A DNA stretch of 52,775 nucleotides from a virus: the IMG/VR virus record IMGVR_UViG_3300042569_001606, positions 1-52,775 of that record, one strand, 5' to 3'. This document shows, piece by piece, positions 1 to 15,341 of this stretch. Position numbers and translations under genes: made by a program. Below the pieces are notes generated by a model. That model did not search any database and was not told the DNA's origin. It saw only the letters and a list, made by a program, of their open reading frames with translations. The first letter of the stretch is position 1. Each line of letters starts with the position of its first letter.

Positions 1-11
1 GCGACCCGCCG

Positions 12-42
12 ACCGTAACCCGCATTCGCAAAAAAAGGAAAG
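12..42 (-). promoter_or_regulatory. Conserved leftward promoter-like element P1
   Basis: Read on the minus strand this is CTTTCC, a T-run, TGCGAA, then TTACGGT. The same 30-31 bp layout recurs at 48522-48552, 46310-46340 (both leftward) and 18296-18325 (rightward). The TACGGT end fits a -10 box of TAnnnT form, and the GGGAT leader hairpin of the downstream gene (52639-52653) begins 6 bases further on, at the expected transcript start. It would drive the leftward operon 52623 to 48559. It is duplicated at 52660-52690 by the terminal repeat. TTCGCA/TGCGAA arms flank the T-run, so a protein operator is an alternative. Confidence 0.6.
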
Positions 43-69
43 CGCTAAATGCGAAACCGTCGACTGACG

Positions 70-108
70 GCCTGATCTGCTGCGCTTGCGTTCAGGCTTT
101 TCTTTTTT
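70..108 (+). terminator. Rightward intrinsic terminator or attenuator in the leader
   Basis: GCCTGA at 70-75 pairs with TCAGGC at 92-97, followed at once by a T-rich tract (98-108). This is a rho-independent terminator reading rightward, yet no rightward gene lies between it and the divergent leftward promoter. It therefore either blocks read-through around the circle or acts as an attenuator ahead of the initiator gene at 307. Confidence 0.6.
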
Positions 109-127
109 CGGGAGGTGGAGGAAGCTG

Positions 128-306
128 CCGGTGTCGGCCCCATAAACGACGAACCCCACCGGGGGGTTCGGTGGGGTCGACGGGCATCAGCAGCAGTGCG
201 AAGGGCGGGAATCCTTTGCCGCTGATGCCTCCCAAAAGGAGCAGGGCTGGGTGCATCCTAGTCCCTGCTCCCCAACGCGATCAACCCCAGATCGCATGAG
301 GGCCGC
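128..306 (+). promoter_or_regulatory. Multi-hairpin leader upstream of the initiator gene
   Basis: No gene is visible here; the stretch is nearly continuous stem-loops. CGAACCCC (150-157) pairs with 163-170, or alternatively 153-161 pairs with 169-177; both stems are perfect and mutually exclusive. GGCATCAGC (183-191) pairs with 221-229. GGAGCAGGG (238-246) pairs with 263-271 and continues inside through 247-251/257-261 to a TGCAT loop with one bulged T. GCGATC (277-282) pairs with 290-295. The ribosome site GAGGG (298-302) follows, just before ATG 307. It could be a structured 5' leader controlling the initiator, a small RNA, or part of a replication origin. Confidence 0.6.
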
Positions 307-1692
307 ATGGCCAGTTCTGAGCCGTTTCAGATGCTCCCGAATCGCCTGCTAGATACCGTCGCCGATCCCGGCGCGGTCTGGGCGTATCTTTGGTGTCGTC
401 GATTCTCCAACTGGAAGAGTGGAGGGTTGACCAAGACCACAACCGAGATCGCCCAGCTTATGGGCATCACCCAGAGGACGCTGGCCAAATACTTGAAGAC
501 CCTCCAGACCACGGGCTGGATGGTTCTCGATGGGCTCCCAGGCCAGCAGTTCTGGAGGATCATCCCACCCGGAGCCCAGCTGGTCAGGTCGGCGCCTGAC
601 GCAGTTTTTCAGGGGGTCGTTTTTGAGAAGCCTTCCAAAACGGCTTCCCAGAGCCCTCTTTTGCGCGTTCCCGACTTCGCGGCTCTATCTGATCCGGGAT
701 CTGATCCGGAATCTGATCCGGATCTGCTTGGGGTGGTGGGATCTCCTGTAGGCCAGTGCTCTACGGATCTCGATCCTGCTCTCTATCCGGAGGGGGGTCC
801 GGGGGGAACCACGCCCCAGGGGGTGAAAAACCGCGCACCCCCTCCCCCTGAAAAACCGAGCACACCCCCTGAAAACTTGAGCGTGGAGGCGATCGAACGC
901 GGCGACTGGGAAGAGGCCCGCCCGCAGAACGCCAACGCCTTGGCCATCGCGCTGCGCCAGGTCTGGATCGATGAGGTCTGGACCGCATGGGCAGGCGGCG
1001 GGGAGCCCCCCACACGCGGCGTGGGCTCCGACCTCGTGGAGATCCACAAGGCCCTCAAGGACGGCGCAACCCCACGCGGCATCGTCGACGCCTTCCGTGG
1101 CGTCAGCGGCCACCCATGGTTCGCGGCGACCCTCGCCAAAGGAGCCCCGGCGACGGCGCTGCGGGTCATCCTGCACACCAACGCGGGCAAGCTGTACGAA
1201 GAGCTGGCCGCGATCGGGCGCAAACGCCGGGGCCAAGGCGTCGCGGCGGACCGGAACGCTGCCGAGTCCGCTTGGGTCAGCCTGTACGCCTCTGCATTCG
1301 AGGTTCTGGCCAAGGGCAAGCGGAGGGCGCCGACCAGCTACGAAGCCCAGCGGTGGGGCCGTACAGGCTGTTGGGATGTGGTTGAAGTCTCAGACGGCCC
1401 TGGCGGCGTGGTGCCGGTCTACGGTCCGGCTGAGCGGAAGGGGTTCACGTGGGCGGAGATCGCCCGCGTCGATGCGGCGATCAGGTCCATGTCGCTGGCG
1501 GCGGGAAACGTCGCGGCTGGGCGGATTGCCTCGGATCAGGTGCTGGAGCAGTTCGGCACCGTAGGAGGTCAGATCGCCGGTGCGATGCAGCGGCGGGTGG
1601 TGTCGGAGTTCAAGGCGTTTGGGGAGCAGATCGCAGCAGTGGTTGCCGTGGTCGCAGCGCGCCAGTCTCAGCAAGAGCAGGAGCAGGTCTGA
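307..1692 (+). CDS. Replication initiator-like protein with N-terminal helix-turn-helix
   Basis: A 461-residue protein. Residues about 20-85 form a winged helix-turn-helix (TTTEIAQLMGITQRTLAKYLKTL) of the type found in phage and plasmid replication initiators. The middle, about 110-200, is low-complexity and rich in Asp, Ser, Pro and Gly, and the C-terminal half is an unassigned alpha-helical region. The gene lies directly before the primase-helicase, with its stop overlapping that ATG, which is where lambda-like phages place their initiator or helicase loader. Three perfect 11-bp repeats lie inside the gene (687-721), as iterons do in lambda O. The start follows GAGGG. The assignment rests on fold and position; a DnaD/DnaT-type helicase loader is the main alternative. 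Confidence 0.6.
   Translation: MASSEPFQMLPNRLLDTVADPGAVWAYLWCRRFSNWKSGGLTKTTTEIAQLMGITQRTLAKYLKTLQTTGWMVLDGLPGQQFWRIIPPGAQLVRSAPDAVFQGVVFEKPSKTASQSPLLRVPDFAALSDPGSDPESDPDLLGVVGSPVGQCSTDLDPALYPEGGPGGTTPQGVKNRAPPPPEKPSTPPENLSVEAIERGDWEEARPQNANALAIALRQVWIDEVWTAWAGGGEPPTRGVGSDLVEIHKALKDGATPRGIVDAFRGVSGHPWFAATLAKGAPATALRVILHTNAGKLYEELAAIGRKRRGQGVAADRNAAESAWVSLYASAFEVLAKGKRRAPTSYEAQRWGRTGCWDVVEVSDGPGGVVPVYGPAERKGFTWAEIARVDAAIRSMSLAAGNVAAGRIASDQVLEQFGTVGGQIAGAMQRRVVSEFKAFGEQIAAVVAVVAARQSQQEQEQV
687..721. repeat. Iteron-like tandem repeats inside the initiator gene
   Basis: The 11-mer ATCTGATCCGG occurs perfectly at 687-697, 699-709 and 711-721, with a 12-bp period, and a partial ATCTG follows at 722-726. 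It encodes a Ser-Asp-Pro repeat. Because 12 bp is also four codons, the repeat may serve only the protein. However, exact conservation of wobble positions, location inside the putative initiator gene and the comparatively AT-rich flank (603-660) match the lambda-type origin arrangement. Confidence 0.45.
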
Positions 1693-3704
1693 TGAAAAAG
1701 TTTGGAGCAGCAGAACGTGATCCGCCGACGTCGTCGGAGATCGAACGCGTCGTGGGTATGGGCTTGCGCATCAAGCGCCGCGTCAAGGAGAGCAGCGGCG
1801 TCCATGTGCTGGCGGACTGCCCGTTCAACGGGTGCAAGCAGCACCTCTACGTCAACGTGGAGAGCGGCCTGTGGGACTGCAAGAAGTGCGAGGAATCCGG
1901 CAACATCTGGCGCCTGGCCGATCACCTCGGCATCCGCCTGCGCGACAGCCAACCACGGATCGTGAAGCAGGTCGGTAGCGCGCTGGTTGCTGGCGCACGG
2001 GCCAAGGCCAACCGAGTCGTCACCAACGCCAAGGGCATCGACCTCGCAGGCGTGCAGTCAGCGTGCGATCGCCTCTTTGCCGAAGACGACAAGGCCGGCG
2101 CTCGTGTTGGTGAGTACCTGCGCAAGGTTCGCGGGCTCGACGACGACACGATCCGCCGCTTCCAACTCGGCGTCACGTGGATCAAGGAACGCGACTGCAA
2201 GCCGGAGCTGGCGGTGGGAATCCCCTACCTCGACGGCGACAAAGTCCCGCTGATGAAGATCCGCAACCTCGAAACCCAGAAGGACCTGCGGAAGTTCCGC
2301 CGCACCGCTGGCGGCTACTCCGGCCTGTTCAACGCGGCGGGCATCAAGGGGTGCCGACAGGTCGTGCTCGTCGAGGGCGAGCTGGACGCGATCAGCCTCT
2401 GGCAACTCGGCATCCACAACGTGGCCAGCACGAGCCTCGGCGCCAAGAAGACGATCCCGGAGGAGTGGCTGGACGCCCTCGCCGACGTCGAGGACATCGT
2501 GCTTTGGTACGACGGCGACGACAAAGGGCAGGAGGCAGCCGGCGCCCTCGTCGACCAGCTCGGCAGCTACCGTTGTCGGGTGGCCTCGATGCCCGCTGGC
2601 GTGGAGGCCAAGGACGCCAACGACTTGCTCGTGAAGGTGGGCGGCGACGAAGCCGCCGAGCTGGCGCGCAAGGCCGTCGATGCAGCGCTGGGGCTGACCA
2701 ACGGCAACGTCACGACACCCGGAACCTTCGCCGACGCCCTCGAAGCGGAGATCATGGGCGGCGACAGCTCGCTGGGCATCTCGACGGGCTGGCCCTCGGT
2801 CGACCGGCTCATGCGCGGCGTTCGCATGGGTGAGCTCACACTGGTCACCGGCCACACGAACGCGGGCAAGACCTCGTGGGTGCTCCGCCTGCTGCGCAAC
2901 CTCGCACGCCAGGGCTACCCGGTGATGGCCTCGGCGCTGGAGAACGGCCCCGTGGCGATCGCTCGCAAGGTGTTCCAGAGCGAGTTTGGCCGCCCGATCT
3001 CGTCGATCCGCACCGACGAGGATCGCCGGATCGCAATGGGTGCGCTGGCTCAGCTCGACCGCGATCCGCTGTACCTGCTCGACCTCTACGGCAAGCACCC
3101 GCTGGCCAAGATCGTCGACGCCATGACCTACGCCCGCCACCGCCTCGGGGTGCGCTACTTCGGGCTGGACCACCTGCACTTCCTCGGCAAGAGCGATGCG
3201 CGGCAGGAGACGCTGGACCACCTCGACGAAGTGCTGTCGACGCTGACGGAGCTGACGCGCAAGCTGAACATCCACATCTTCCTGATCGCGCACCCCAAGG
3301 GCACCGTTGCCGCCGACACGATCCCCGACGGTGACAGCATCAAGGGCACGTCGTCGGCAAAGCAGACCGCCGACAACGGCGTGACGGTGTTCCGTTCCGT
3401 CGACGTCGCAGGCGATGCGAGCGCCAAGAAGATGAAGATCAAGGACAGCGTGGGCCGCAAGATTGAGATCGAGCTGCAACCCCGCGACGTGCTGATCTCG
3501 GTGTGGAAGGCCCGCCACGACGAAGCCGGCGAGGGCTCCGCCGTTTTGGAGTTCGACCGCCGCAATCTGTGCTACAACGAGAAAGAAGGGACGCGGGATG
3601 CGTCTCACGAGGAGTCCGATGCCAACACCCAAAAAACCGTCGATCAAACAACCCAAGACCTCTGGGGCGCGTCGTCGAAAACAGACGATCCTTTCGCCAG
3701 CTGA
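1692..3704 (+). CDS. Bifunctional DNA primase-helicase (T7 gp4-like architecture)
   Basis: A 670-residue protein. It would synthesise RNA primers and unwind the replication fork. An N-terminal zinc site is formed by Cys43, Cys48, Cys63 and Cys66. A TOPRIM primase core follows, with EGELDA at about 228-233 and YDGDD at 273-277. A RecA-like hexameric helicase domain carries Walker A GHTNAGKTS (387-395) and a Walker B-like LDHLHF around 493. The ATG at 1692 overlaps the upstream TGA by one base; a longer in-frame reading upstream would overlap the initiator gene and lacks domain content. Its 3' end overlaps the RuvC-like gene. No phage DNA polymerase is recognisable, so it probably loads the host polymerase. 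Confidence 0.92.
   Translation: MKKFGAAERDPPTSSEIERVVGMGLRIKRRVKESSGVHVLADCPFNGCKQHLYVNVESGLWDCKKCEESGNIWRLADHLGIRLRDSQPRIVKQVGSALVAGARAKANRVVTNAKGIDLAGVQSACDRLFAEDDKAGARVGEYLRKVRGLDDDTIRRFQLGVTWIKERDCKPELAVGIPYLDGDKVPLMKIRNLETQKDLRKFRRTAGGYSGLFNAAGIKGCRQVVLVEGELDAISLWQLGIHNVASTSLGAKKTIPEEWLDALADVEDIVLWYDGDDKGQEAAGALVDQLGSYRCRVASMPAGVEAKDANDLLVKVGGDEAAELARKAVDAALGLTNGNVTTPGTFADALEAEIMGGDSSLGISTGWPSVDRLMRGVRMGELTLVTGHTNAGKTSWVLRLLRNLARQGYPVMASALENGPVAIARKVFQSEFGRPISSIRTDEDRRIAMGALAQLDRDPLYLLDLYGKHPLAKIVDAMTYARHRLGVRYFGLDHLHFLGKSDARQETLDHLDEVLSTLTELTRKLNIHIFLIAHPKGTVAADTIPDGDSIKGTSSAKQTADNGVTVFRSVDVAGDASAKKMKIKDSVGRKIEIELQPRDVLISVWKARHDEAGEGSAVLEFDRRNLCYNEKEGTRDASHEESDANTQKTVDQTTQDLWGASSKTDDPFAS
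3590..3604 (+). promoter_or_regulatory. GGGAN leader hairpin (copy 1, RuvC-like gene)
   Basis: Stem GACGC/GCGTC closes the loop GGGAT. GAGGAG follows at 3609-3614 and ATG at 3619. It lies inside the 3' end of the primase-helicase gene, so this stretch is both coding and structured. The ATG at 3598 is part of the hairpin and is not the likely start. Confidence 0.75.
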
Positions 3705-4266
3705 TGCCCTGCGGGCGCTCTTGCTCGACGAGAGCGGCCAGTGCTTGCCTTTCGTTTCCATCGATCCGTCGACGGCGTCGTTGGGGTGGTCGGTCTGGGC
3801 CGGAGGGCTCACGCACCGCATCGAGCGAAGCGGAGCCCTGCCCCGTGGATGGGCTGAGAAGGAGGCGCTGGCCCTTCTCCGCACCGCTCCTGTCGTCAAC
3901 GGCGCCGTGTGCCTGGCCCTCGTGATTGAGGACCAGTTCATGGGCCGCAACCCGGCGTCAGCGATCCGCGTCATCGAAGCGCGGATGCGTGTCGAGGTCG
4001 TGGCGCGGCTGCTCGGGTGGAAGATCGCCCGCGTGCCCGCGACGACGTGGCAGAGCGCCAAGCTGCACATCAAGGGCGAGAAGTTCCCGACACGCGGCAA
4101 GGACGCGAAGCGCGCAACCACGCATGTGCCGCCGACGGAAGTGCTCAAGGAAAGGTCGATCGCCTTGGCGCGGAAGATCGACCCTCGACTCTCCGGCGCC
4201 GACCTTGTCGACGATCAGGCCGACGCGATCGTGCTCGGTGAGTACGTGACCGAGGTGATCAAGTGA
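3619..4266 (+). CDS. RuvC-like Holliday junction resolvase / RNase H-fold nuclease
   Basis: A 215-residue protein. It shows the RuvC pattern: a first acidic residue in a strand (FVSIDPSTASLGWSVW), a second in VIEDQFMGRNP, and a C-terminal DLVDDQADAIVLGEY supplying the last acidic pair. Such enzymes resolve branched DNA from replication and recombination before packaging. Start choice: ATG 3619 follows the conserved GGGAT hairpin and GAGGAG; ATG 3598 would add seven residues but lies within the hairpin. The gene overlaps the primase-helicase by 86 bases and the next gene by four (GTGA). Basic N-terminus, probably DNA-contacting. Confidence 0.82.
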   Translation: MPTPKKPSIKQPKTSGARRRKQTILSPADALRALLLDESGQCLPFVSIDPSTASLGWSVWAGGLTHRIERSGALPRGWAEKEALALLRTAPVVNGAVCLALVIEDQFMGRNPASAIRVIEARMRVEVVARLLGWKIARVPATTWQSAKLHIKGEKFPTRGKDAKRATTHVPPTEVLKERSIALARKIDPRLSGADLVDDQADAIVLGEYVTEVIK

Positions 4267-5060
4267 TTCCCACGCAGGCGAATCCGTGGGAGTTGCTGGC
4301 GGGGCGGAGCGAGAGGGTGATGGCGAAGGCGCTGGCCGATGCTGGCGTCGTGCTGGACGCGCTGATCACCGATCCGCCGTACAGCCACCGCACGCACAGC
4401 GGCAACCAAGCTGCGGTCTACGCCGACGGAGCAGGCGACCGGCGCAAGATCGCATACGACCACTGGGAGCGCCGCCACGTCGCCGCATTCGTGAGGCGCT
4501 GGCACCCGCTGTGTCGAGGTTGGTTCGTCGCCCTGACCGACCACGTACTGGCCCCGGTCTGGGAGAAGGAGCTGGAGCGCGCAGGCCGCTACGTCTTCGC
4601 CAACATCCCGGTCGTGATCCCAGGGATGACGGTGCGCACGAGCGGAGATGGCCACAGCACCGAGAGCGTTTGGTGCATCGCTGCTCGCCCACGCACGAAA
4701 GGGTTCGCCTCGTGGGGCACCCTTCCCGGCTGGTACAAGAGCACCGGGCGCGATGGGTGGTCGCGGCAGATGGGATCCAAACCGCTCGACGTGATGGGCG
4801 CGATCTTGCGCGACCACAGCCGCATCGGTGACCTCGTCGGCGACCCCTGCGCAGGCGGAGGTACGACGGTGTTGGCGGCGGTGCTCAACGGACGGCGCGG
4901 CATCGGGTGCGACATGGACAAGGCGCTTGTCGCCGAGGCCAGAGAGGCGATCGCACGCCGCGCTCAACCTTCACTTCTCGCTTCCATCGCTGAGTCGATC
5001 CGGACAAAGCAGGAGGGCGAGGCATTCGCGGCAGCCGAGCAGGCACCGCTTTTCGAGTAA
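4263..5060 (+). CDS. DNA N4-cytosine / N6-adenine methyltransferase
   Basis: A 265-residue SAM-dependent methyltransferase. The catalytic DPPY lies near residue 38 (ITDPPYSHR) and the SAM-binding DPCAGGGTT near 197, so the order is catalytic motif first, as in the beta-type N4/N6 enzymes. No restriction endonuclease partner is adjacent, so it is probably an orphan enzyme that protects phage DNA or marks it. GTG start overlapping the previous stop (GTGA) with GAGGTG upstream. DPPY allows either N6-A or N4-C, and the sequence does not decide between them. Confidence 0.88.
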   Translation: MIPTQANPWELLAGRSERVMAKALADAGVVLDALITDPPYSHRTHSGNQAAVYADGAGDRRKIAYDHWERRHVAAFVRRWHPLCRGWFVALTDHVLAPVWEKELERAGRYVFANIPVVIPGMTVRTSGDGHSTESVWCIAARPRTKGFASWGTLPGWYKSTGRDGWSRQMGSKPLDVMGAILRDHSRIGDLVGDPCAGGGTTVLAAVLNGRRGIGCDMDKALVAEAREAIARRAQPSLLASIAESIRTKQEGEAFAAAEQAPLFE

Positions 5061-5071
5061 CGGAGACGACG

Positions 5072-5947
5072 ATGGCAACGATCCAGAAGCAACCCGTCAG
5101 CCTGCGCGCATTCGCGCCACTCAAGACCCATTTTGCAGCGCTGAACGGCGGCAAAGCACAGCCCGTGATGACGGTGCGCATCCCGCTTGAACTCGACGCC
5201 ACCGACGAGGTGTTGAAGGCCGACCCGTGGCGCCACCTGTTCCCCTTTGCGGCAGAGACGATGTCCCTGATCGCAGGACGGGAGGGTGACGAGAAACGCG
5301 GCACCGACATCACCGCTCGTGGCTCGGTGACCGATCTTCATGTCGAGCTGTTCGATGGCGAGATCGACGACAAGCCGGCGTTCAACTTCCAGAGCGCCGT
5401 CGTTGCGGGCAAGCCGCGCCTGGCGATCGACGAAGACGGCAAAGGCGTGATCCACCTCAAGGTCAAGGCCGTGCTGAGCAAGCGCGATTTTGGCGAGCTG
5501 GGCCCGTACATCGACGCATCGCTGTTCTGCTCGCTCACGACGGCGCAGCGCACGATCGACGAGCAGATCGCCGAGAACAAGGCAGCCGCCGAGGGCAACG
5601 CGACGATCCCCGAGAAGAAGCAGAAGCCGCCGAAGGAGGAACGCTGGGTGTCGCCGCTCGACAGCAAAGAGGGATCGATCGCCTACGTGTTCACGACGGA
5701 CGCCGACGCCTTCGTGAAGTCGGCGTTGTCGCTGCACACTGATTTGCGGGAGGCCCAGATCGTTGAGGCAGCCCGCAAGATCGCACGCGTGAGCGCAGGT
5801 CTTCAGGCACGCCGTGTGAGCGTGAGCCTCGACAACGTCAAAGATGTCGTCGACACGCTGGTTGGTCCTTCGATCGTGAAAGACCTCGAAGCGTTCAAGG
5901 CGGAGAAGGCCGCGCAGGCGGCGCAGGGCAGTGGCGCGGCAGAGTGA
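5072..5947 (+). CDS. Hypothetical early protein
   Basis: A 291-residue soluble protein I do not recognise. The N-terminal 150 residues look like mixed beta structure. A lysine/glutamate-rich linker (about 165-190) and a C-terminal helical segment ending in an Ala/Gln-rich tail follow. It has no signal peptide or membrane segment and no catalytic motif I can name. A clean ribosome site (GGAGACG) precedes ATG 5072. It lies between the methyltransferase and a leader-hairpin gene in the replication arm, suggesting a DNA-metabolism role, but that is inference only. Confidence 0.8.
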   Translation: MATIQKQPVSLRAFAPLKTHFAALNGGKAQPVMTVRIPLELDATDEVLKADPWRHLFPFAAETMSLIAGREGDEKRGTDITARGSVTDLHVELFDGEIDDKPAFNFQSAVVAGKPRLAIDEDGKGVIHLKVKAVLSKRDFGELGPYIDASLFCSLTTAQRTIDEQIAENKAAAEGNATIPEKKQKPPKEERWVSPLDSKEGSIAYVFTTDADAFVKSALSLHTDLREAQIVEAARKIARVSAGLQARRVSVSLDNVKDVVDTLVGPSIVKDLEAFKAEKAAQAAQGSGAAE

Positions 5948-5957
5948 TCGTTGTCGT

Positions 5958-5974
5958 CGCTGCGGGATGCAGCG
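5958..5974 (+). promoter_or_regulatory. GGGAN leader hairpin (copy 2)
   Basis: Stem CGCTGC/GCAGCG (6 bp) with loop GGGAT, then GAGGAG at 5978-5983 and a GTG start at 5990 with six-base spacing. No copy of the 30-bp promoter element precedes it, so it is probably an intra-operon copy. Confidence 0.75.
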
Positions 5975-5989
5975 CATGAGGAGCAAGCG

Positions 5990-6460
5990 GTGGACGAAGT
6001 AGCGGCGACAGCATGGGCGGGAGCGGTGAAGATGGCGGCGCGATCGAAGGATCGCCGTGGCCTTGTCTCCGCTCTCGTCTTTCACGAAGGGCAGAGCTAC
6101 CGCGTCGAGGTCGCAGCGATGTACGTCGAGCCCGACAACTACGACCACCGGGCCAAGATTCCGAGCCCCTATAACGTCGCCACACGCTGGCAGCTCGTTG
6201 TGCGGCTGGACCTCGAAGGCGCGGCGCGGACCAAGAGCCCGACAGACGACACGGCCATTCTGGGTGTGCTCTCGCAGGTGCAGGCCGCGATCACGGTGCT
6301 CTTCGAGCCCGGTCAGGTGCCTGGCCTCAAGGCAACGTTCGCGCGGACCAAAGCGCAGCTCGCATACGAAACGTGGCGCGGCGGCGACGTCGGCGGCGCA
6401 ACGTGGGTGGTCCGCAAGGGCCGCTGGGTTTCTCTCCACAGCGCACTGATTCAATGGTGA
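5990..6460 (+). CDS. Hypothetical early protein
   Basis: A 156-residue protein of unknown function with central beta strands (SYRVEVAAMYV, WQLVVRLDLEG). The GTG at 5990 is chosen because it sits six bases after the GAGGAG of the conserved hairpin leader; an upstream in-frame TTG at 5951 would translate through the hairpin. The next gene starts seven bases downstream. Confidence 0.75.
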   Translation: MDEVAATAWAGAVKMAARSKDRRGLVSALVFHEGQSYRVEVAAMYVEPDNYDHRAKIPSPYNVATRWQLVVRLDLEGAARTKSPTDDTAILGVLSQVQAAITVLFEPGQVPGLKATFARTKAQLAYETWRGGDVGGATWVVRKGRWVSLHSALIQW

Positions 6461-6467
6461 GGGTGTG

Positions 6468-6956
6468 ATGCTTTTTTCGGAAGTGTTGATGGCGTCATCC
6501 GTCGAGGATGGCGAAGTGATGGAAGACGGGCGCCCTGTGCGCCTGCGCGTGATTCTCCAGCGGCGTTGGGGCTGGCCACGAGCGGCGGCGAACGCGGCGG
6601 CGGAGATCCTGCGAGCGAGGGCCGCACCGGGCCGTGCCGTCGTTCACCTCGTCGGGGCGGAGCGAATGCAGCAGCAACAAGAGCTGCTGCGCAGCCACCC
6701 CGACCTCGTGACCGGGCTCTGCGAAGGACTCGCACGCGGCAAGGTGCACACCGACGAGCACGAAGCCGGCTTGCGTATCCGCCGCATCGAGCTGTCGCTG
6801 TCGCACACGGTCCACAATCTCGGGCTCGTGAGCGACATCCTGGCCTTGCTCGAACAGCGGTTTGGCTCCGAGCTGGCCGACGTCGTGATCACCCCTCACG
6901 GCGCGGGCACCAACCCTGCGGTCGCGATCGCCGTATCGCTGACGGATGACCAGTGA
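6468..6956 (+). CDS. Hypothetical early protein
   Basis: A 162-residue soluble protein with no recognised domain. It contains a basic helical middle section and a hydrophobic C-terminal beta-like section. GTG (6465) and ATG (6468) are consecutive; ATG is taken as the start because GAGGG lies just upstream. Overlaps the next gene by four bases, indicating translational coupling. Confidence 0.72.
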   Translation: MLFSEVLMASSVEDGEVMEDGRPVRLRVILQRRWGWPRAAANAAAEILRARAAPGRAVVHLVGAERMQQQQELLRSHPDLVTGLCEGLARGKVHTDEHEAGLRIRRIELSLSHTVHNLGLVSDILALLEQRFGSELADVVITPHGAGTNPAVAIAVSLTDDQ

Positions 6957-7231
6957 CCGAGGCGCCGGTGGTCCCGTGGATCCTCGGCACGAGGCTGGCG
7001 CTTGCGAGGGCGCTGGCTCTCGTCGTCGCCGAGGAACGCAAGCTGTGCTGGGGTCGGATGACCCCGGCACAGCGCGATCGGCTCGTGGCAGAAGCAGAGC
7101 GCCGCGTGCAACGCTGGGTGGCGGAGGGTGCTGCGCGCACCTTCCTGTCGGAATGGAGAGAGCCCCTTGTTGAAGCGAACACCGATGAAGCGGTCGACGA
7201 AGCCGATGGCTCGACGGAGCAAGAAGGCTGA
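6953..7231 (+). CDS. Hypothetical small protein
   Basis: 92 residues, GTG start overlapping the previous stop. Helical throughout, with a strongly acidic C-terminus (EANTDEAVDEADGSTEQEG). No domain recognised. Its 3' end overlaps the HNH-like gene in another frame by about 65 bases, so one of the two starts may be later than drawn. Confidence 0.65.
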   Translation: MTEAPVVPWILGTRLALARALALVVAEERKLCWGRMTPAQRDRLVAEAERRVQRWVAEGAARTFLSEWREPLVEANTDEAVDEADGSTEQEG

Positions 7232-7529
7232 AGCGCGATACGCCGGCACCGACGGCAAGGGCGAAGGCCGACGCGACTTCGTGCGGCGCATTCTCGATGA
7301 GCGCCCGGAGTGCGAGGTGGCCTTGCCGCAATGGTGCGACCGCCAAGCGACCGAGGTGCACGAGAAGTTGCGCCGCTCCGCAGGCGGCAACATCACCGAC
7401 GACGCCAACGTGCTTGCGGTCTGCCACTGGTGCCATCAGTGGGTGCACGCCAACCCCGCGATGAGCATGAAAAAGGGCTGGCTGCTGTCGAGATACGACG
7501 GCGACGACGAGGTGGAAGCGTGCGACTGA
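7167..7529 (+). CDS. HNH-type nuclease-like protein
   Basis: About 120 residues. After a basic, Lys/Arg-rich N-terminus (LKRTPMKRSTKPM, typical of small phage HNH proteins), the core has a first Cys pair (ECEVALPQWC), then EVHEKLRRSAGG, then VCHWCHQWVHANP. This is the Cys-His metal-finger frame of HNH nucleases, with the H of EVH as the candidate catalytic residue. Start is uncertain: TTG 7167 or 7170 follows GGAGAG at proper spacing, and ATG 7185 is the next option. Possible roles are nicking endonuclease, packaging helper or NinG-like recombination factor. Confidence 0.68.
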   Translation: MLKRTPMKRSTKPMARRSKKAEARYAGTDGKGEGRRDFVRRILDERPECEVALPQWCDRQATEVHEKLRRSAGGNITDDANVLAVCHWCHQWVHANPAMSMKKGWLLSRYDGDDEVEACD

Positions 7530-7801
7530 CCAGCAAGGACAGCGAGATTGCCCGCCAGTGGATCGCAGAGCGCGATCGCATCAGCGGCTCTGCGTCGTTC
7601 CTCGACGGGCGCTTTGAGCTTGCCCCCTACAAGGGCGCCGACATCTTCGTCACCGCCGACGTTGCCGAGGGCAACAAGATGCTCGCTCGTGGCATCGCCC
7701 TCGACAACGTCGCGGCGGCGCTCGCTGCCCGTGCGGTCGCGAGAGAGCACGGGGCCACGGCGACTCAGCGTGCCCTCGTGAACCTGTTTTCACTGGAGTA
7801 G
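7520..7801 (+). CDS. Hypothetical small protein
   Basis: 93 residues beginning at GTG 7520 (MRLTSKDSEIARQWIAERD), overlapping the HNH gene by ten bases with GAGGTGG upstream. Helical, no motif recognised. It ends nine bases before the first ParB-like gene. Confidence 0.68.
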   Translation: MRLTSKDSEIARQWIAERDRISGSASFLDGRFELAPYKGADIFVTADVAEGNKMLARGIALDNVAAALAARAVAREHGATATQRALVNLFSLE

Positions 7802-7810
7802 GGAGCAGCC

Positions 7811-8452
7811 ATGCAAGACCACACGAGCACCGCCCGCACGATCCACACTCGCCCCATCGCGGACTTCAAGCCGGACCCTCACAACGCACGGCAGCACAGC
7901 GCCCGAAACCTTGAGGCGATCCGGGAGTCCCTTCACGTCTTCGGGCAGGTGAAGCCGATCGTTGCCCTCGACGACGGTACGGTTATCGCGGGCAACGGAA
8001 CGCTGACCGCCGCCAAGATGCTCGGCTGGACGCACCTTGCTGCCGTCATCTTTCCCGACGTCGAGAAGGCCAAGGCGTTCGCCATCGCCGACAACCGCAC
8101 CGCCGAGCTGGCCGAATGGGACCAGGTTGCGTTGGCGACCGCGCTGCAAAGTTTCTCTGAGGAAGCGATCGCAGCAGCCGGCTTCGACCTCAACGAAGCG
8201 GCCAGCATCATGTCGGCGGCGTTCTCCGCTGCTGTGCCGCTCCCAGAGGCACCGCCAGACCTTCCGCCGCCGCCTCCCCCGCCTCGGGAGCGGCCTGACC
8301 TCCCAACGAGCACCACGCGCACTGTGCACCTCCACTTCACGCCGGAGGCAGAGGTGAAGTTCACCAAGGCGGTGAAGAAGCTGGCCAAGCAGTTCGGCAC
8401 GGCAAACGTCACCGACACGGTGCTGGCGGCGCTGCTGAAGGCGGTGGGCTGA
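7811..8452 (+). CDS. ParB-like N-terminal domain protein (first of a tandem pair)
   Basis: 213 residues. Residues about 15-100 carry the ParB/Srx fold: DPHNARQHSARNLEAIRESL, then FGQVKPIVAL and GTVIAGNGTLTAAKMLGW, which is the CTP/phosphate-binding pocket region. A proline run (about 155-165) links to a short C-terminal helical domain. Phage ParB-like proteins of this kind neighbour DNA methyltransferases and DNA glycosyltransferases. The next gene is a second copy overlapping by one base, and a glycosyltransferase gene follows. A chromosome-partition role is unlikely because there is no ParA. Confidence 0.82.
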   Translation: MQDHTSTARTIHTRPIADFKPDPHNARQHSARNLEAIRESLHVFGQVKPIVALDDGTVIAGNGTLTAAKMLGWTHLAAVIFPDVEKAKAFAIADNRTAELAEWDQVALATALQSFSEEAIAAAGFDLNEAASIMSAAFSAAVPLPEAPPDLPPPPPPPRERPDLPTSTTRTVHLHFTPEAEVKFTKAVKKLAKQFGTANVTDTVLAALLKAVG

Positions 8453-9279
8453 TGTCGGCGTGGAAAGGACCGAAGCAGCTGATCCCCATGCTCGTGGACC
8501 GTCAGCAGCTCGCTGCTGACCCTCGCAACGCACGAGCCCACGATGCCCGCAGCATCAAAGCGATCGCCGAGAGCCTAGACCGCTTCGGACAGCGCAAGCC
8601 GATCGTGGTCCGCCGAGGTGTCGTCATCGCCGGCAACGGCCAGCTCGCTGCGGCGGAAGCCCTGGGGTGGGATCGCATTGCTGTCGTCGACGGCTCCGAC
8701 CTCAGCGACACGGACGCCACCGCCTTCGGGATTGCCGACAACCGCACGGCTGAGTTGTCGACGTGGGACACCGACATCTTGAAAGAGCTGATGGCGGACC
8801 TTCCGACGGACGTCAGCATTGCGCTGGGCTTCGACGGTGAGGAGCTGACGGCATTGTTTGCTGAAACACCCGACGGCGACGAAGCGCCGAAGGCCACCGA
8901 CGGCATCGACGACACGTACACCGCCAAGATCGCTTCTCCGGTTTACGAGCCGCGCAACGAATGCCCTCCCGTTGCTGATCTTGTTGACCGCACAAAGACA
9001 GTGAAGCTCAAGGCTGAGATCGATGCTGCTGACCTCCCTGCCGATGTCGCGGCGTTTCTTCACCTTGCGGCGGAGCGTCACGCTGCTTTCGACTTCCACC
9101 GCATCGCAGATTTCTACGCCCACGCCGACGCACCAACGCAGCGGCTGATGGAGCGCAGTGCCCTCGTCATCATCGACTTTCAGCAAGCGATCGATCAGGG
9201 CTACGTGCGGCTGTCGCAGGTGACGGGTCAGCTCGCCGAGAAAGAGAAGCCGAAGGCCGGTGACGACGATGAGGTCTGA
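8452..9279 (+). CDS. ParB-like protein with C-terminal extension (second of the pair)
   Basis: 275 residues. The N-terminal ParB/Srx domain (DPRNARAHDARSIKAIAESL, FGQRKPIVV, VIAGNGQLAAAEALGW) is paralogous to the preceding gene. A distinct C-terminal region (about 165-265) contains the RTKTVKL segment, FDFHRIADFYAHAD, and MERSALVIIDFQQAIDQGYV, a block I associate with ParB-like proteins beside phage DNA-modification genes. The two ParB copies probably act together. ATG overlaps the upstream TGA; its stop lies inside the start of the glycosyltransferase gene. Confidence 0.82.
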   Translation: MSAWKGPKQLIPMLVDRQQLAADPRNARAHDARSIKAIAESLDRFGQRKPIVVRRGVVIAGNGQLAAAEALGWDRIAVVDGSDLSDTDATAFGIADNRTAELSTWDTDILKELMADLPTDVSIALGFDGEELTALFAETPDGDEAPKATDGIDDTYTAKIASPVYEPRNECPPVADLVDRTKTVKLKAEIDAADLPADVAAFLHLAAERHAAFDFHRIADFYAHADAPTQRLMERSALVIIDFQQAIDQGYVRLSQVTGQLAEKEKPKAGDDDEV

Positions 9280-10123
9280 CTTTGCCGCATTCATCCTCAC
9301 GCATGGCCGACCCGATCGCGTCCACACCTACAAGACGCTGATGGAAGCCGGCTACACCGGCAAGGTGTATTTCATCGTTGACGACGAGGACGTCACCGCC
9401 GATGCCTACCGCGCACGATTCGGTGAAGAGCGTGTGTTGACGTTCAGCAAAGCGGAGGCTGCCAAGCTGTTCGACATCGGCGACAACTTCGAGGGCCGAC
9501 GCGGCGTGGTCTACGCTCGCAACGCTGCTTGGGGTCTTGCTCGCTCAGTGGGGCTGAAGCACTTCATTGCCCTCGACGATGACTACACGAGCCTGTTCTA
9601 CCGCTACGACAGTCGGGGCGCCTACGGCTCTTTCCGCATCCGCCGCACCGTCGACGATCTGCTGGAAGCGCTTGTGGCGTTCATGGAGGCGACGCCCGCT
9701 CTGACCATCACGATCTCCCAGGGCGGTGACCACATCGGCGGCGCGAACGACACGCTGAGGCTCAAGCGCAAAGCGATGAACACTTTTGTGTGCTCGGTGG
9801 ATCGCCCGTTCCGATTCGATGGCCGCATCAACGAAGACGTCAACGCCTACGTCATGGAGGCTCGACGTGGGCGTTGCATGTTCACCCTCATGCAAGCGCA
9901 GGTGAACCAGCTGATGACGCAGAGCAACGCTGGAGGGATGACCGAGCTGTATCTGGACAGCGGCACCTACGTGAAGAGCTTCTACAGCGTGATGCTGGAA
10001 CCGAGCTGCGTGCGGATCGGCCAGCTCGCCGATCCGAGGTCACCGCACTGGCGCTTCCACCACGCGATCAACTGGCGGAACGCTGCTGTCCAGATCGTCC
10101 ACGAACGACACCGGAAGATCTGA
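9269..10123 (+). CDS. TET-associated-type glycosyltransferase (TAGT family)
   Basis: 284 residues from ATG 9269 (GTG 9260 would add three). A GT-A-like fold is indicated by an N-terminal FILTHGRPDRVHTYKTL, VYFIVDDED, and the putative metal-binding FIALDDDYTSLFYRYD. Further conserved blocks are GGDHIGGAND, NEDVNAYV, TQSNAGGMTELYLDSGTYVKSFY and a C-terminal HHAINW. These match the family described beside TET/JBP oxygenases, ParB-like proteins and methyltransferases in phages, proposed to glycosylate modified bases in phage DNA. No TET/JBP oxygenase is recognisable here, so the acceptor base is unknown. Confidence 0.78.
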   Translation: MRSDFAAFILTHGRPDRVHTYKTLMEAGYTGKVYFIVDDEDVTADAYRARFGEERVLTFSKAEAAKLFDIGDNFEGRRGVVYARNAAWGLARSVGLKHFIALDDDYTSLFYRYDSRGAYGSFRIRRTVDDLLEALVAFMEATPALTITISQGGDHIGGANDTLRLKRKAMNTFVCSVDRPFRFDGRINEDVNAYVMEARRGRCMFTLMQAQVNQLMTQSNAGGMTELYLDSGTYVKSFYSVMLEPSCVRIGQLADPRSPHWRFHHAINWRNAAVQIVHERHRKI

Positions 10124-10137
10124 AGTAGACAGCAGGC

Positions 10138-10163
10138 GGTGATTCTCCTAAAAGAGAATCACC
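10138..10163 (+). promoter_or_regulatory. Perfect 10-bp stem-loop upstream of the DUF4942 gene
   Basis: GGTGATTCTC (10138-10147) pairs fully with GAGAATCACC (10154-10163) around a CTAAAA loop. No T-tract follows, so it is not a typical terminator. It abuts the GGGAT leader hairpin at 10164-10178. Its CTCCT...GAGAATC stretch loosely resembles part of the conserved promoter element, so it may be a degenerate version. Confidence 0.6.
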
Positions 10164-10178
10164 GGCGCGGGATGCGCC
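10164..10178 (+). promoter_or_regulatory. GGGAN leader hairpin (copy 3, DUF4942 gene)
   Basis: Stem GGCGC/GCGCC with loop GGGAT, then ACGAGGA (SD at 10183-10187) and ATG 10194. It directly follows the 10-bp stem-loop, giving two stacked hairpins before the start. Confidence 0.78.
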
Positions 10179-10193
10179 TCACGAGGAACCGCA

Positions 10194-11066
10194 ATGAGCG
10201 CCGAGAACAAAACCACAAGCCTGCTGCCGTCGATCTCTGTCGTCGACGTCGTGCGCCACCGCAACGAGATCGTCGACAAGCTCAAGCAAGCCGCAGGAAT
10301 CTTTGGCGAGGCCGTCGCCATCGGCAAGAGCATGGAGGTCTACGGGCTCGACGCTTCGCTGTCGCTGTCGGTGTCCAGCTACTCGCACCGCCTCGGCTGG
10401 TTCGGCGACAAGGAGCTGACCGAGCAGCTGACGAAAGACGTCGACCGTCGCATCTGGCAGACGCTCATCGAGCGCAGCGGGATCAAGACCTTCATGGATT
10501 CCGAGGCACGCGAAGCCTTCCACAAAGACCTGATGGACCGAGCCCCGCCGATCTCTGTCGAGAACGTCACGGCCACCTTCGCCTCTCTGCACGATCGCCG
10601 CGCCGAGATGTTTGAGCGCGGTGTGGTGAACCTGTTCCGCCGTCGCTCGTGGGACTTCAAGACCAACAGCCCGGTCGCCTTCGGCAACAAGATGATCCTC
10701 CGCAGCGGCTGCGAGACGCGCTGGGGTGGACGCTGGGGCCTCGGCATCATGGCCGGCACGAGCGACGCCCTCGACGACATCCTGCGCGTTCTGGCGGTGC
10801 TCGCTGGGCACCCCGAGCCCGACCACCGTCAGGGCTCCGCCGCGCAGATCGTCGCCCAGCCGTGGGGCCCCAACGATCCCGTCGCGGTCATCGGTGTGCC
10901 TGGGTGCACGCCAGCGCTGCCGATGTTCGAGGTCAAAGGCTTCCGCAACGGCAACATCCACATCCGCTTCGTCCAACCGCAGCTGATCCAGAAGCTGAAC
11001 CGGATCGTGGCGAAGCATCACCCCAACATGCTGCCCCCCAGCGAAAAGGAAGTGGCCAATGGTTGA
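10194..11066 (+). CDS. DUF4942-domain protein
   Basis: 290 residues. The C-terminal half has the DUF4942 pattern: VENVTATFASLHDRRAEMFERGVVNLFR, WDFKTNSPVAFGNKMIL, DDILRVLAVLAGHPEPDHR, and FRNGNIHIRFVQPQLIQKLNRIV. This domain is found in phage and mobile-element proteins, often fused to or beside DNA methyltransferases; its biochemical role is unknown to me. It has its own hairpin leader, so it probably starts a regulated segment. Overlaps the next gene by eight bases. Confidence 0.78.
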   Translation: MSAENKTTSLLPSISVVDVVRHRNEIVDKLKQAAGIFGEAVAIGKSMEVYGLDASLSLSVSSYSHRLGWFGDKELTEQLTKDVDRRIWQTLIERSGIKTFMDSEAREAFHKDLMDRAPPISVENVTATFASLHDRRAEMFERGVVNLFRRRSWDFKTNSPVAFGNKMILRSGCETRWGGRWGLGIMAGTSDALDDILRVLAVLAGHPEPDHRQGSAAQIVAQPWGPNDPVAVIGVPGCTPALPMFEVKGFRNGNIHIRFVQPQLIQKLNRIVAKHHPNMLPPSEKEVANG

Positions 11067-11337
11067 GCCAGCGACAGAGCGCTACCTGCGCGCACAGATC
11101 GAAGCCCTCCGCACCGACGCCAAGATCGTCGCCCAGCACCGTGAGGCTGAGCGCGCCATGTACCGCACGCGCATCGACGCGCTCAAAGGTGCGCTGGAGA
11201 AGGCCGCGTTGCGCAACTTTGCCTCTGGCCCGTGCTTCTGCACGGTGCCGATCCCCGAGGGCACCGCCCATCACCTCAGCTGCCAGCACATCCGCAACGT
11301 GCTCGCCAACGACGGAAAGGTGGTCACCAATGGCTGA
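11059..11337 (+). CDS. Hypothetical coiled-coil small protein
   Basis: 92 residues, mostly helical and charged at the N-terminus (coiled-coil prone), followed by a Cys/His stretch (GPCFCTVPIPEGTAHHLSCQH) that could bind zinc. Function unknown. Overlaps both neighbours by eight bases. Confidence 0.68.
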   Translation: MVEPATERYLRAQIEALRTDAKIVAQHREAERAMYRTRIDALKGALEKAALRNFASGPCFCTVPIPEGTAHHLSCQHIRNVLANDGKVVTNG

Positions 11338-11821
11338 CCTCGAAGCTGAGCACCGTGAACTTTTGAAAGCACGCGATGACCTCGCCAGCGTTGCCCAAGC
11401 GTGGGCCAGCAAGTGCGCTGAGCAATCCGCACAAATCAAGGAGCTGGAGAAGGAGCGCGAGAAGCTGATCGACGAGTGTTGCCGTTTTGAAAACGCCAAC
11501 GTTGCTCTTGTCGACGAGAGAAAGCGGCTGACCGACGCGTTGGCCTACTGCTTCGATCGTCGCGGCATCAACTTCTCATACGACGAGTGGGCGGAGTTGT
11601 GCGTCAAAGCGCTGGGTCGACAGCCCGCCGCCCTCGGCGCCGGCAACGATGGCCCAGGCACGCTGCGCGCCGAGAAGGCGGAGGCTGAGGTTGCTCGGCT
11701 CCGTGTTGAGCTTGCTGAGTCTGAGGCCACCGTCGCCGACCTGAACCGGCAGATCGACGAGGCCCACCGAGACAATGCGCAGCTGATCTTGTCGGCCATG
11801 CACCGGGAAGGTGGCCAGTGA
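11330..11821 (+). CDS. Hypothetical coiled-coil protein
   Basis: 163 residues from ATG 11330 (MADLEAEHRELLK). Long heptad-like coiled coils at about 1-65 and 105-155 flank a short globular piece (FDRRGINFSYDEWAELC). No catalytic motif. Overlaps the previous gene by eight bases and the next by four (GTGA). Function unknown. Confidence 0.7.
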   Translation: MADLEAEHRELLKARDDLASVAQAWASKCAEQSAQIKELEKEREKLIDECCRFENANVALVDERKRLTDALAYCFDRRGINFSYDEWAELCVKALGRQPAALGAGNDGPGTLRAEKAEAEVARLRVELAESEATVADLNRQIDEAHRDNAQLILSAMHREGGQ

Positions 11822-12501
11822 AAGAGCACGGCATTCTCTTCAAAGACGAGATGGTGCGGGCTCTGATCGCGGGCCTGAAGACCGAGACGCGGCGCGCGAT
11901 CAAGGGCATCCCTCCTGACTTCATCGGCGGCGACACCGCGTTCGTCACCGATGGTTCCCGCTGGGCAGTGTCGCGGTCGTTCCTCGACAGACGCGGTGTT
12001 GGATGCTTCCCCGAGGGCGACGCCGCTCTGCGTCACACCTTCGGCTCCCCTGGGTGCACGCTGTGGGTGCGTGAAGTCTGGGATCTTACGAAGTCCGCTT
12101 GGGTGAACGACGACGACGACCAGATCCGTTTCGTTGGCCCAGCGTCCAAAGATCCACGAGGCCATGCGTTGAACGACTGGCGTCTGAGCTTTCGAGCTGA
12201 TGACCAGTACCCAGCGGAGGCCAAATGGCGCTCATCTTTGCTGATGCCTCGATGGGCAGCACGGATCACCGCCACGCTTGTCGAGGTCGAGCCCCAGAAG
12301 CTGGGCCAGATCACCGAGGCCGACGCGGCAGCCGAGGGCATGGCCCTTGTCGCCAAGGAACGCGGTTGGGGTCGCATGCCGCTGCGTGAAGTCTTCTACC
12401 GCTACTTCGCAGAGATTCACGGCGGAAAACCTGACGACGACATGCCGGTCTGGGTTGTCCGTTTCAAGGATGTCGTTGTCGGGAAGGCGGGTGGCTCGTG
12501 A
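11818..12501 (+). CDS. ASCH/PUA-like phage protein
   Basis: 227 residues opening with ILFKDEMVRALIAGLKTETRR, the signature N-terminus of a widespread family of phage proteins with an ASCH (PUA-like beta-barrel) fold predicted to bind RNA or modified bases. The C-terminal WRSSLLMPRWAARITATLVEVEPQKLGQITEADAAAEGM agrees with the family. Members are often labelled morphogenetic protein without proof. GTG start coupled to the previous stop. A role as a reader of modified nucleic acid would fit the nearby modification genes, but this is inference. Confidence 0.7.
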   Translation: MKEHGILFKDEMVRALIAGLKTETRRAIKGIPPDFIGGDTAFVTDGSRWAVSRSFLDRRGVGCFPEGDAALRHTFGSPGCTLWVREVWDLTKSAWVNDDDDQIRFVGPASKDPRGHALNDWRLSFRADDQYPAEAKWRSSLLMPRWAARITATLVEVEPQKLGQITEADAAAEGMALVAKERGWGRMPLREVFYRYFAEIHGGKPDDDMPVWVVRFKDVVVGKAGGS

Positions 12502-12827
12502 GCGTGCGCAGCGGTACCGACCACCAGATCCTCGTGCGCATCAAGCGCGGCGACAGCGGCGCAAGCATCGTCGACGAGCTGGGTTGCTCTTACGCCCGGA
12601 TCAGAGCGATCGCGAAGGCGCACGGCATCGAGCGCAAGACCACGGGCGGAGCCGTTGCCCGCCTGTCCGGGGAATACCCCCTGAAAACGCAGCACGACCC
12701 ACGGAGAATCACGCCGTGGGTCCGGGTGGCCCTCCCAGTGGGTTGGGCCGTTTCCGTGAGCTACGACGGCTTGGGCGACGAGGTGATCGTGCTCAGGCGA
12801 AGGGAGCCAGATGCGATCGACGAATGA
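12498..12827 (+). CDS. Small helix-turn-helix-like protein
   Basis: 109 residues. Residues about 12-45 (RIKRGDSGASIVDELGCSYARIRAIAKAHGI) look like a homeodomain-type or resolvase-type helix-turn-helix. The rest is an unassigned beta-rich segment. GTG start overlapping the previous stop; its 3' end overlaps the cytosine methyltransferase by 17 bases. Possibly a DNA-binding partner of that enzyme. Confidence 0.62.
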   Translation: MSVRSGTDHQILVRIKRGDSGASIVDELGCSYARIRAIAKAHGIERKTTGGAVARLSGEYPLKTQHDPRRITPWVRVALPVGWAVSVSYDGLGDEVIVLRRREPDAIDE

Positions 12828-13737
12828 CCTTGTGGCCGTGGACCTGTTCGCAGGCCTCGGCGGCTTCTCCACCGGCGCTGTACTGGCCGGGGCTCGTGTC
12901 GCGTGGGCGGCGAACCACTGGAAGCGGGCCGTTGAGCTCCACGAAGCCAACCACCCCGACACGATCCACGCGTGCCAGGACCTCCACCAAGCCGACTTCA
13001 CCAAGGTGCCCGACCACGACGTCATGCTGGCCTCGCCTGCGTGCCAAGGTCACAGCCGCGCACGCGGGGGCAACACCGACGCATCGGCTGACCTGTCGAG
13101 GTCGACGGCGTGGGCGGTGGTCGCTGCGGCGGAGGTGAAGCGCCCTCCTTTCGTCGTCGTCGAGAACGTGCCCGACTTCGTGCGCTGGAAGCTGTTCCCC
13201 GCGTGGCTGAGCGCCATGAATGCGCTGGGCTACCACGTCGAGCCCCACGAGGTGGACAGCGCCGATCACGGGGTGCCTCAGAACCGTGAGCGCCTGTTTC
13301 TGGTGTGCTCGCTGCGGGCTCCGCTTCGGTTGGTGCTCCCTCGCAGGCCGCACGTCAGCGCCAGCAGCTTCGTGCAGATGGGCGAGGGCCGCTGGTCGGA
13401 GGTCCACCGCCCTGGCCGAGCTGCGGCGACGCTGGCGCGGGTGTCCTGGGGTCGGCAGCACATCGGCGACCAGTTCCTGATCTGCTACTACGGCAACACC
13501 TCGACGGCGCGATCGTTGACCCGCCCCATCGGCACCATCACGACGCGGGACCGCTGGGCGATCGTCGACGGTGACCGAATGCGGATGCTCAGCGCAGAAG
13601 AGTGCAAGGCTGCGATGGGCTTTCCGTCGTCGACGAAGCTGCCGCAGAAGCACGCCGAGGCCGTCCACATGCTGGGCAACGCGGTGTGCCCTCCCGTGGC
13701 GGCGGACATCATCACCGAGATTGCGAGGGCCGCGTGA
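12811..13737 (+). CDS. Cytosine-C5 DNA methyltransferase
   Basis: 308 residues with the ordered C5-methyltransferase motifs: I DLFAGLGGFS (11-20), IV ASPACQGHS with catalytic Cys78, VI VVVENVPDF, VIII VPQNRERLF, and X near the C-terminus (MLGNAVCPPVAADII). The residue before the catalytic Cys is Ala instead of the usual Pro, a variant I associate with a subset of phage and prophage enzymes. No restriction partner is seen. It may protect phage DNA or provide 5-methylcytosine for further modification in combination with the glycosyltransferase. ATG start. Confidence 0.92.
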   Translation: MRSTNDLVAVDLFAGLGGFSTGAVLAGARVAWAANHWKRAVELHEANHPDTIHACQDLHQADFTKVPDHDVMLASPACQGHSRARGGNTDASADLSRSTAWAVVAAAEVKRPPFVVVENVPDFVRWKLFPAWLSAMNALGYHVEPHEVDSADHGVPQNRERLFLVCSLRAPLRLVLPRRPHVSASSFVQMGEGRWSEVHRPGRAAATLARVSWGRQHIGDQFLICYYGNTSTARSLTRPIGTITTRDRWAIVDGDRMRMLSAEECKAAMGFPSSTKLPQKHAEAVHMLGNAVCPPVAADIITEIARAA

Positions 13738-15337: not shown

Positions 15338-15341
15338 CCCG

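What the first reader, a model, noticed from the sequence alone, without database searches (positions are those of the whole stretch)
61..306. Chain of stem-loops, including two mutually exclusive ones, ahead of the initiator gene
In 240 bases there are a terminator hairpin (70-108), a pair of alternative perfect hairpins competing for the same bases (150-157/163-170 versus 153-161/169-177), a 9-bp stem (183-191/221-229), a 14-bp stem with one bulge (238-271) and a 6-bp stem (277-282/290-295) just before the ribosome site. A terminator upstream plus alternative structures is what attenuators and riboswitch-like leaders look like, and strong palindromes next to an initiator also suit an origin.
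Basis: seen in the sequence. Interest (0 to 1): 0.72.

Follow-up and report, generated by a model that had tools for sequence, protein, structure and literature searches.

The report
Folded leader before phage replication gene
The stretch just before a phage's replication gene really is packed with RNA hairpins far beyond chance, but they look like a rigid mRNA leader in a two-way control region rather than a riboswitch or replication origin, and following it up uncovered a repeated hairpin that marks the start of eight of the phage's genes.

Summary
The window is a circular tailed-phage genome: its first and last 127 bases are identical, leaving 52,648 bp. On the circle, 52624..306 is a 331-bp control region between a leftward operon and the rightward replication operon (initiator gene at 307, then primase-helicase).

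Every named arm exists. The 246 nt fold at z = -4.2, and hold more perfect stem than any of 643 windows or 300 shuffles.

Forcing the other changes neither the downstream hairpins nor the ribosome site. No Rfam family reaches its cut-off. GC skew does not turn here. The best origin candidate lies inside the initiator gene (iterons 687-726), as in lambda O.

Best reading: a static, multi-hairpin 5' leader of the replication mRNA. Main rival: an antisense RNA on the minus strand.

No relative holding this region could be found, so conservation is untested.

In passing: the leftward side carries one of eight copies (four more in a related phage) of a covarying GGGA-loop hairpin directly before the Shine-Dalgarno. 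It is a structured look-alike of the unexplained Start-Associated Sequences of cluster K mycobacteriophages.

The parts
1..306 (.). right part of the 331-bp divergent control region 52624..52648 + 1..306; leftward gene starts at 52623, rightward initiator gene at 307
   Evidence: terminal repeat 1-127 = 52649-52775; gene layout
70..108 (+). terminator-like hairpin 70-75/92-97 with T-rich tail 98-108
   Evidence: shuffle z -2.4 on its own
131..145 (+). possible four-codon leader ORF GTG TCG GCC CCA TAA with GGAGG at 117-121; overlaps the 5' arm of the outer stem
   Evidence: read from sequence; effect of occupying it modelled; not shown to be translated
133..181 (+). hairpin B: outer stem 133-143/171-181 (11 bp, two G.U) plus inner stem 150-157/163-170 (8 bp), 6-nt bulge
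   Evidence: -34.5 kcal/mol; z -4.4
153..177 (+). competing perfect stem 153-161/169-177; minor on the + strand unless 133-142 is occupied
182..230 (+). hairpin C: stem 182-191/221-230 with an inner 8-bp stem
   Evidence: z -3.4
238..271 (+). hairpin D: 14 bp, one bulge, one G.U, loop TGCAT
   Evidence: z -5.4
277..295 (+). hairpin E: GCGATC aacccca GATCGC directly before the Shine-Dalgarno 298-302 (GAGGG)
   Evidence: z -6.7
144..231 (-). sub-threshold resemblance to 6C RNA (two hairpins, one with CCCCCC loop); candidate antisense RNA
   Evidence: 30.9 bits, cut-off 47
255..284 (-). weak promoter-like pair TTGATC-18-TAGGAT
   Evidence: 8 of 12; 36 such sites at 8 of 12 in the genome, 5 outside genes
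10..43 (-). leftward promoter-like module CTTTCCTTTTTTTGCGAA..TACGGT, related copies at 48553-, 46340- and 18296+
52639..52653 (-). pre-Shine-Dalgarno hairpin GTCGC-gggat-GCGAC of the leftward operon, one of 8 copies in the genome
307..1692 (+). initiator-like gene: N-terminal helix-turn-helix, linker, helical C-terminal part
   Evidence: HTH, E about 1e-3, below curated cut-offs; low-confidence model
687..726 (+). 3.4 tandem 12-bp iterons ATCTGATCCGGR inside the linker of the initiator gene; candidate origin
   Evidence: GC3 falls to 0.54 over 604-885
604..885 (.). inverted and direct copies of CCCCCTGAAAAAC around the iterons (604-616, 824-842, 844-862, 865-882)

Best explanation
61-306 is the 5' leader (untranslated region) of the rightward replication-operon mRNA, in the divergent control region of a circular tailed phage. 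On the + strand it folds into four consecutive stable hairpins (B 133-181, C 182-230, D 238-271, E 277-295) ending directly at the Shine-Dalgarno. It most likely works as a static structure: it protects the 5' end of the initiator/primase message and shields it from Rho and nucleases, and it holds the ribosome site in a partly open pocket between hairpin E and the start codon. The hairpin with a T-tail at 70-108 stops any rightward transcript that starts further upstream. Shown here: the structures, their excess over chance, the gene layout, and that predicted openness of SD and AUG is the same in every fold tested. Inferred: that the leader is transcribed on the + strand, and the protective role.
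For: z = -4.24 with 0 of 200 shuffles as low; most perfect stem of 643 windows; fold z of -5.2, level with the lowest of 528 windows. The region lies between divergent operons, so a rightward message must start in or upstream of it. The stems' imperfect positions are G.U on the + strand, and hairpins B and D are 7.6 and 3.9 kcal/mol stabler as + than as - RNA. Hairpin E sits in the same slot before the SD as the eight covarying hairpins of other genes in this phage. C, D, E and SD/AUG openness are unchanged whatever happens to hairpin B or to the 5' end.
Against: No + strand sigma-70-like promoter was found in the region. No relative carrying the region could be found, so there is no covariation or conservation for these stems. 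Hairpin C is as stable on the minus strand as on the + strand. The protective role is an inference from general knowledge of 5' hairpins.
Confidence: 0.5

Rival explanations
1. Antisense-RNA gene: a minus-strand RNA of about 100 nt (start near 248, end near 145-140) covers the initiator leader and lowers initiator synthesis by loop-loop pairing, as in plasmid copy-number control. The strong hairpins are the shared antisense/target structures.
For: Minus-strand promoter-like TTGATC-18-TAGGAT at 284-255. Minus strand 231-144 resembles the two-hairpin, C-rich-loop 6C RNA at 30.9 bits. GC-rich complementary loops (C6 on -, G6 on +). A terminator-like hairpin on the minus strand at 178-152. Antisense RNA inhibiting translation of a replication initiator is known in plasmids, e.g. 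RNAII/repB of pMV158 (PMC4485353, abstract).
Against: The 6C score is well under the curated cut-off of 47, and four of 14 control genomes ring sub-threshold too. The promoter match is 8 of 12, one of 36 such sites, most of them in genes. The minus-strand U-tail is poor (CGTCGTTTAT). B and D fold better on the + strand.
Confidence: 0.2
2. DNA-level element: the inverted repeats are operators or recognition sites for a repressor, the initiator or a partition protein at the divergent promoters, and RNA folding is a by-product.
For: Both strands fold equally well by z; the region is the divergent promoter region; an HTH repressor-like gene (50543-50758) and ParB-like proteins are encoded.
Against: The arms of the hairpins do not share a common sequence, unlike repeated operators. 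The stems' imperfect positions are G.U rather than random mismatches. GC skew does not turn here. A better origin candidate lies at 687-726.
Confidence: 0.15
3. Conditional leader: a four-codon ORF (131-145) is translated, its ribosome blocks the 5' arm of the outer stem, and the hairpin flips to 153-161/169-177, regulating the operon as a leader-peptide attenuator.
For: GGAGG then GTG TCG GCC CCA TAA read from sequence. Blocking 116-147 raises the competing hairpin from 0.03 to 0.97.
Against: The flip changes nothing downstream: C, D, E and SD/AUG openness stay the same. No terminator follows the switch. A four-codon ORF with GTG start is weak evidence.
Confidence: 0.07
4. Origin of replication at 61-306.
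For: Palindromes beside an initiator gene.
Against: No iterons or AT-rich stretch in 110-306; no skew turn at the region; iterons plus A-rich repeats lie inside the initiator gene with a local fall in GC3.
Confidence: 0.05

Closest known systems
Structured 5' leaders of phage early or replication operons (general class)
   Same: Non-coding, strongly folded stretch just ahead of the first gene of an operon, last hairpin abutting the SD
   Different: No sequence match to any Rfam 15 family at cut-off; four hairpins in 165 nt is unusually dense for this genome
6C RNA (RF01066)
   Same: On the minus strand, two adjacent hairpins, the second with a CCCCCC loop and a very similar stem
   Different: 30.9 bits against a cut-off of 47; first loop lacks six Cs and is longer than the model's; position overlaps an initiator leader
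Plasmid antisense-RNA control of replication initiators (e.g. RNAII of pMV158)
   Same: Long structured leader before an initiator gene, weak opposite promoter inside it
   Different: No transcript shown; the phage has iterons inside the initiator gene
Start-Associated Sequences (SAS/ESAS) of cluster K mycobacteriophages (PMC3203893), for the pre-SD hairpins found in passing
   Same: Repeated GGGAT followed by AGGAG(CCC) just before start codons of scattered genes; for four of the eight copies a promoter-like inverted-repeat module lies upstream
   Different: Here GGGAY is the loop of a covarying 5-bp hairpin and about 10 nt separate it from AGGAG. Cluster K has the contiguous 13-mer, and the authors found little support for hairpins in the ESAS repeats there. 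R1 scores cluster K phage Anaya sites at only 9-12 bits against 42-53 here.
Lambda-type origin inside the O initiator gene (own knowledge)
   Same: Tandem iterons in the linker between the DNA-binding N-terminus and the C-terminal part of the initiator
   Different: 12-bp units, 3.4 copies; binding not shown

Membership tests
Transcription attenuator or riboswitch leader | Two mutually exclusive structures of comparable stability or switchable balance | tested here: inconclusive
   Free leader: 0.97 vs 0.004-0.03; flips only if 133-142 is occupied
Transcription attenuator or riboswitch leader | One of the two states forms a terminator, or hides or frees the ribosome site | tested here: not met
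   No U-run after either hairpin; SD/AUG openness unchanged
Transcription attenuator or riboswitch leader | Match to a known riboswitch or leader family | tested here: not met
   Rfam gathering scan empty; lax scan gives no riboswitch
6C RNA (RF01066) | Score at or above the curated cut-off of 47 bits | tested here: not met
   30.9 bits
6C RNA (RF01066) | Two hairpins, each with at least six Cs in the loop (definition from own knowledge) | tested here: not met
   Second loop yes, first loop no
Replication origin | GC-skew turning point | tested here: not met
   Turns at about 45.3 and 18.4 kb
Replication origin | Initiator iterons | tested here: not met
   None in 61-306; the array is at 687-726
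Plasmid-type antisense control | Opposite-strand small RNA with promoter and terminator | tested here: inconclusive
   Weak promoter and weak terminator matches only
Conserved structured leader | Stems kept by compensatory change in relatives | not testable with these tools
   The related phage's contigs (L010, L107) do not cover the region; searches with neighbouring genes and motifs found none that do
SAS (cluster K), for the pre-SD hairpins | Contiguous 13-mer GGGATAGGAGCCC within two mismatches | tested here: not met
   0 sites in the window

The most novel reading that the evidence does not exclude
The phage runs a post-transcriptional regulon. A phage or host RNA-binding factor reads a GGGAY-loop hairpin plus Shine-Dalgarno at eight scattered genes (including both the first leftward gene and the UvrD-like gene behind it), while the replication operon on the other side of the same control region carries a different, four-hairpin leader that exempts it or answers to a separate signal, possibly an antisense RNA. 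The SAS motif of cluster K phages would be the unstructured cousin of the same system.
Probability: 0.2. Interest if true: 0.7.

Novelty: new variant of a known kind. Interest (0 to 1): 0.42.

Why it matters
The leader itself is a clean example of a strongly folded replication-gene leader and a good test bed for static versus regulated 5' structures in phages. More useful is what it led to: a covarying hairpin fused to the ribosome site, repeated at eight starts in one genome. The function of the cluster K SAS repeats, described in 2011, is still reported as unknown (PMC3203893, PMC11373665). A structured look-alike gives a handle for asking whether such repeats are translation signals read by a protein.

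Tried and rejected
Balanced hairpin switch: rejected, an outer stem locks one state. Riboswitch or known leader: no Rfam match. Origin at 61-306: skew and iterons point elsewhere. Terminator serving an upstream gene: upstream genes run the other way on the circle. Relatives of the initiator, primase-helicase and UvrD-like genes in viral contigs, and of the initiator in genome contigs: none confirmed, none of the initiator in phage records. Exact pattern of the central palindrome in viral contigs: none. Phage-encoded CsrA as reader of the GGGAY hairpins: no CsrA gene, and the loop lacks the A of the ANGGA site (own knowledge). Integrase genes (tyrosine or serine): none found. Single-sequence model of the initiator: too poor for a fold search (pLDDT 38), so none was run. 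GGGAY-hairpin pattern hits in other viral contigs scored 12-22 bits, partly by construction of the pattern, and were not pursued.

Full report
What the window is. Bases 1-127 are identical to 52649-52775 and the identity stops there, so the record is a circular assembly of 52,648 bp; an overlap of exactly 127 is a common assembly k-mer length, which is an inference. It encodes a tailed phage: terminase, portal, major head protein, tape measure, primase-helicase, Sak4-like annealing protein, exonuclease, ParB-like proteins, methyltransferases and a dCTP deaminase. The rightward genes run from 307 to 42315 and the leftward ones from 52623 down to 42316. The finding therefore lies in a 331-bp divergent control region (52624..52648 plus 1..306) that the linear coordinates hide.

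Observation. Every arm described is present. The region folds at -123 kcal/mol against -101.6 +/- 5.1 for shuffles, 0 of 200 as low. It holds 39 bp of perfect stem, more than any of 300 shuffles (maximum 31) and more than any of 643 windows of the genome. In a genome scan of 200-nt windows its z of -5.2 is level with the lowest. The minus strand is as extreme by z, so folding alone does not say which strand, or whether RNA or DNA, matters. Two details point to the + strand: the imperfect positions of the stems are G.U there, and hairpins B and D are 7.6 and 3.9 kcal/mol stabler as + RNA; hairpin C is 1.2 kcal/mol stabler as minus RNA.

The 'mutually exclusive' pair. The resulting 19-bp hairpin is -34.5 kcal/mol; the rival state of the same stretch is -23.6. 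Cotranscriptional prefixes reach the same end state. If 133-142 is occupied, the rival wins (0.97-0.99). A possible four-codon ORF, GTG TCG GCC CCA TAA at 131-145 behind GGAGG, covers that very arm, which is a neat possibility. But in all states C, D, E and the openness of SD and AUG stay the same, and no U-run follows either hairpin, so the switch has no visible output.

The terminator. Hairpin 70-75/92-97 with TTTTCTTTTTT is a fair intrinsic-terminator candidate, but on the circle no rightward gene precedes it. It could only stop transcripts started inside the control region or antisense transcripts from the leftward operon. No segment able to pair with its arms as an antiterminator was seen by eye.

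Origin. Detrended cumulative GC skew turns at about 45.3 and 18.4 kb and rises through the control region. The highest-scoring tandem repeat of the genome is the 12-bp iteron array at 687-726. It is flanked by repeats of CCCCCTGAAAAAC and sits where the initiator's third-position GC falls to 0.54 from 0.76-0.82, in a linker between the HTH (Pfam E about 1e-3, below curated cut-offs) and the C-terminal part. This resembles the lambda O arrangement (own knowledge) and is a better origin candidate; binding is not shown.

Antisense rival. A lax Rfam scan gives 6C RNA on the minus strand at 231-144 with 30.9 bits (cut-off 47), and a TTGATC-18-TAGGAT pair stands upstream on that strand. Both are weak. 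Together they make an antisense RNA over the initiator leader the main rival.

Relatives. A related phage (sample 3300033076) is held as two contigs, L010/L085 and L107, 84-90% identical over most shared genes, but neither covers the control region. That the two contigs are one phage is an inference from sample and identity. Searches with the initiator, primase-helicase and UvrD-like genes found nothing that covers it. Conservation of the leader is therefore untested, which is the main weakness of any functional claim.

Found in passing. The leftward side of the control region carries a promoter-like module (CTTTCCTTTTTnTGnGAA, then a TAnnnT-like hexamer 17-18 nt behind TTTCCT) and a hairpin directly before the SD. 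The hairpin (G N Y G C - GGGAN - G C R N C, then CA-GAGG, then ATG/GTG) occurs eight times in the window and four times in the relative. All 55 pair cells are paired. Two of the five pairs change on both sides and one uses all four Watson-Crick types. The covariation score is 0.50 against 0.155 +/- 0.047 in shuffles and at most 0.135 when slid. One copy (start 3619) lies inside the 3' end of the primase gene, so it is not confined to intergenic promoters. Model R1 separates the 12 copies (42-53 bits) from everything else (at most 20 bits in the same records); the copies built the model, so that separation is partly by construction. Sequence and position recall the SAS motif GGGATAGGAGCCC of cluster K mycobacteriophages, whose ESAS partner holds a promoter with inverted repeats (PMC3203893, PMC11373665). 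The window has no SAS within two mismatches, and R1 finds only weak matches at Anaya's SAS sites. So it is a look-alike, not a member. Hairpin E before the initiator gene occupies the same slot with a different loop.

Verdict. The structure is real and extreme. It is most likely a static, four-hairpin leader of the replication operon (0.5), with an antisense RNA as the main rival (0.2). It is not shown to be a switch and is probably not the origin.

Noticed in passing
starts 3619+, 5990+, 10194+, 18366+, 52623-, 52308-, 48480-, 46269-; L010 14578-, 6941-; L107 1042+, 3661+: Twelve covarying hairpins with GGGAY/GGGAA loop directly before the Shine-Dalgarno; look-alike of cluster K SAS.
   Followed up: partly
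10-43 -, 48520-48553 -, 46321-46340 -, 18296-18320 +: Promoter-like module CTTTCCTTTTTnTGnGAA..TAnnnT ahead of four of these genes; 46267-46405 is 96% identical to the relative, above its coding identity.
   Followed up: partly
687-726 and 604-885: Iterons and A-rich repeats inside the initiator gene: candidate origin.
   Followed up: partly
about 10138-10163: Perfect inverted repeat GGTGATTCTC-CTAAAA-GAGAATCACC just before one GGGAY hairpin, partly kept in L010; operator-like.
   Followed up: no
9260-10123 +: Protein of the PHROG family named beta-glucosyl-HMC-alpha-glucosyltransferase, next to ParB-like and methyltransferase genes; hints at modified DNA.
   Followed up: no
   Followed up: yes
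36401-36600, 41601-41800, 7601-7800, 10001-10200: Other stretches with unusually strong folding, mostly at gene junctions.
   Followed up: no
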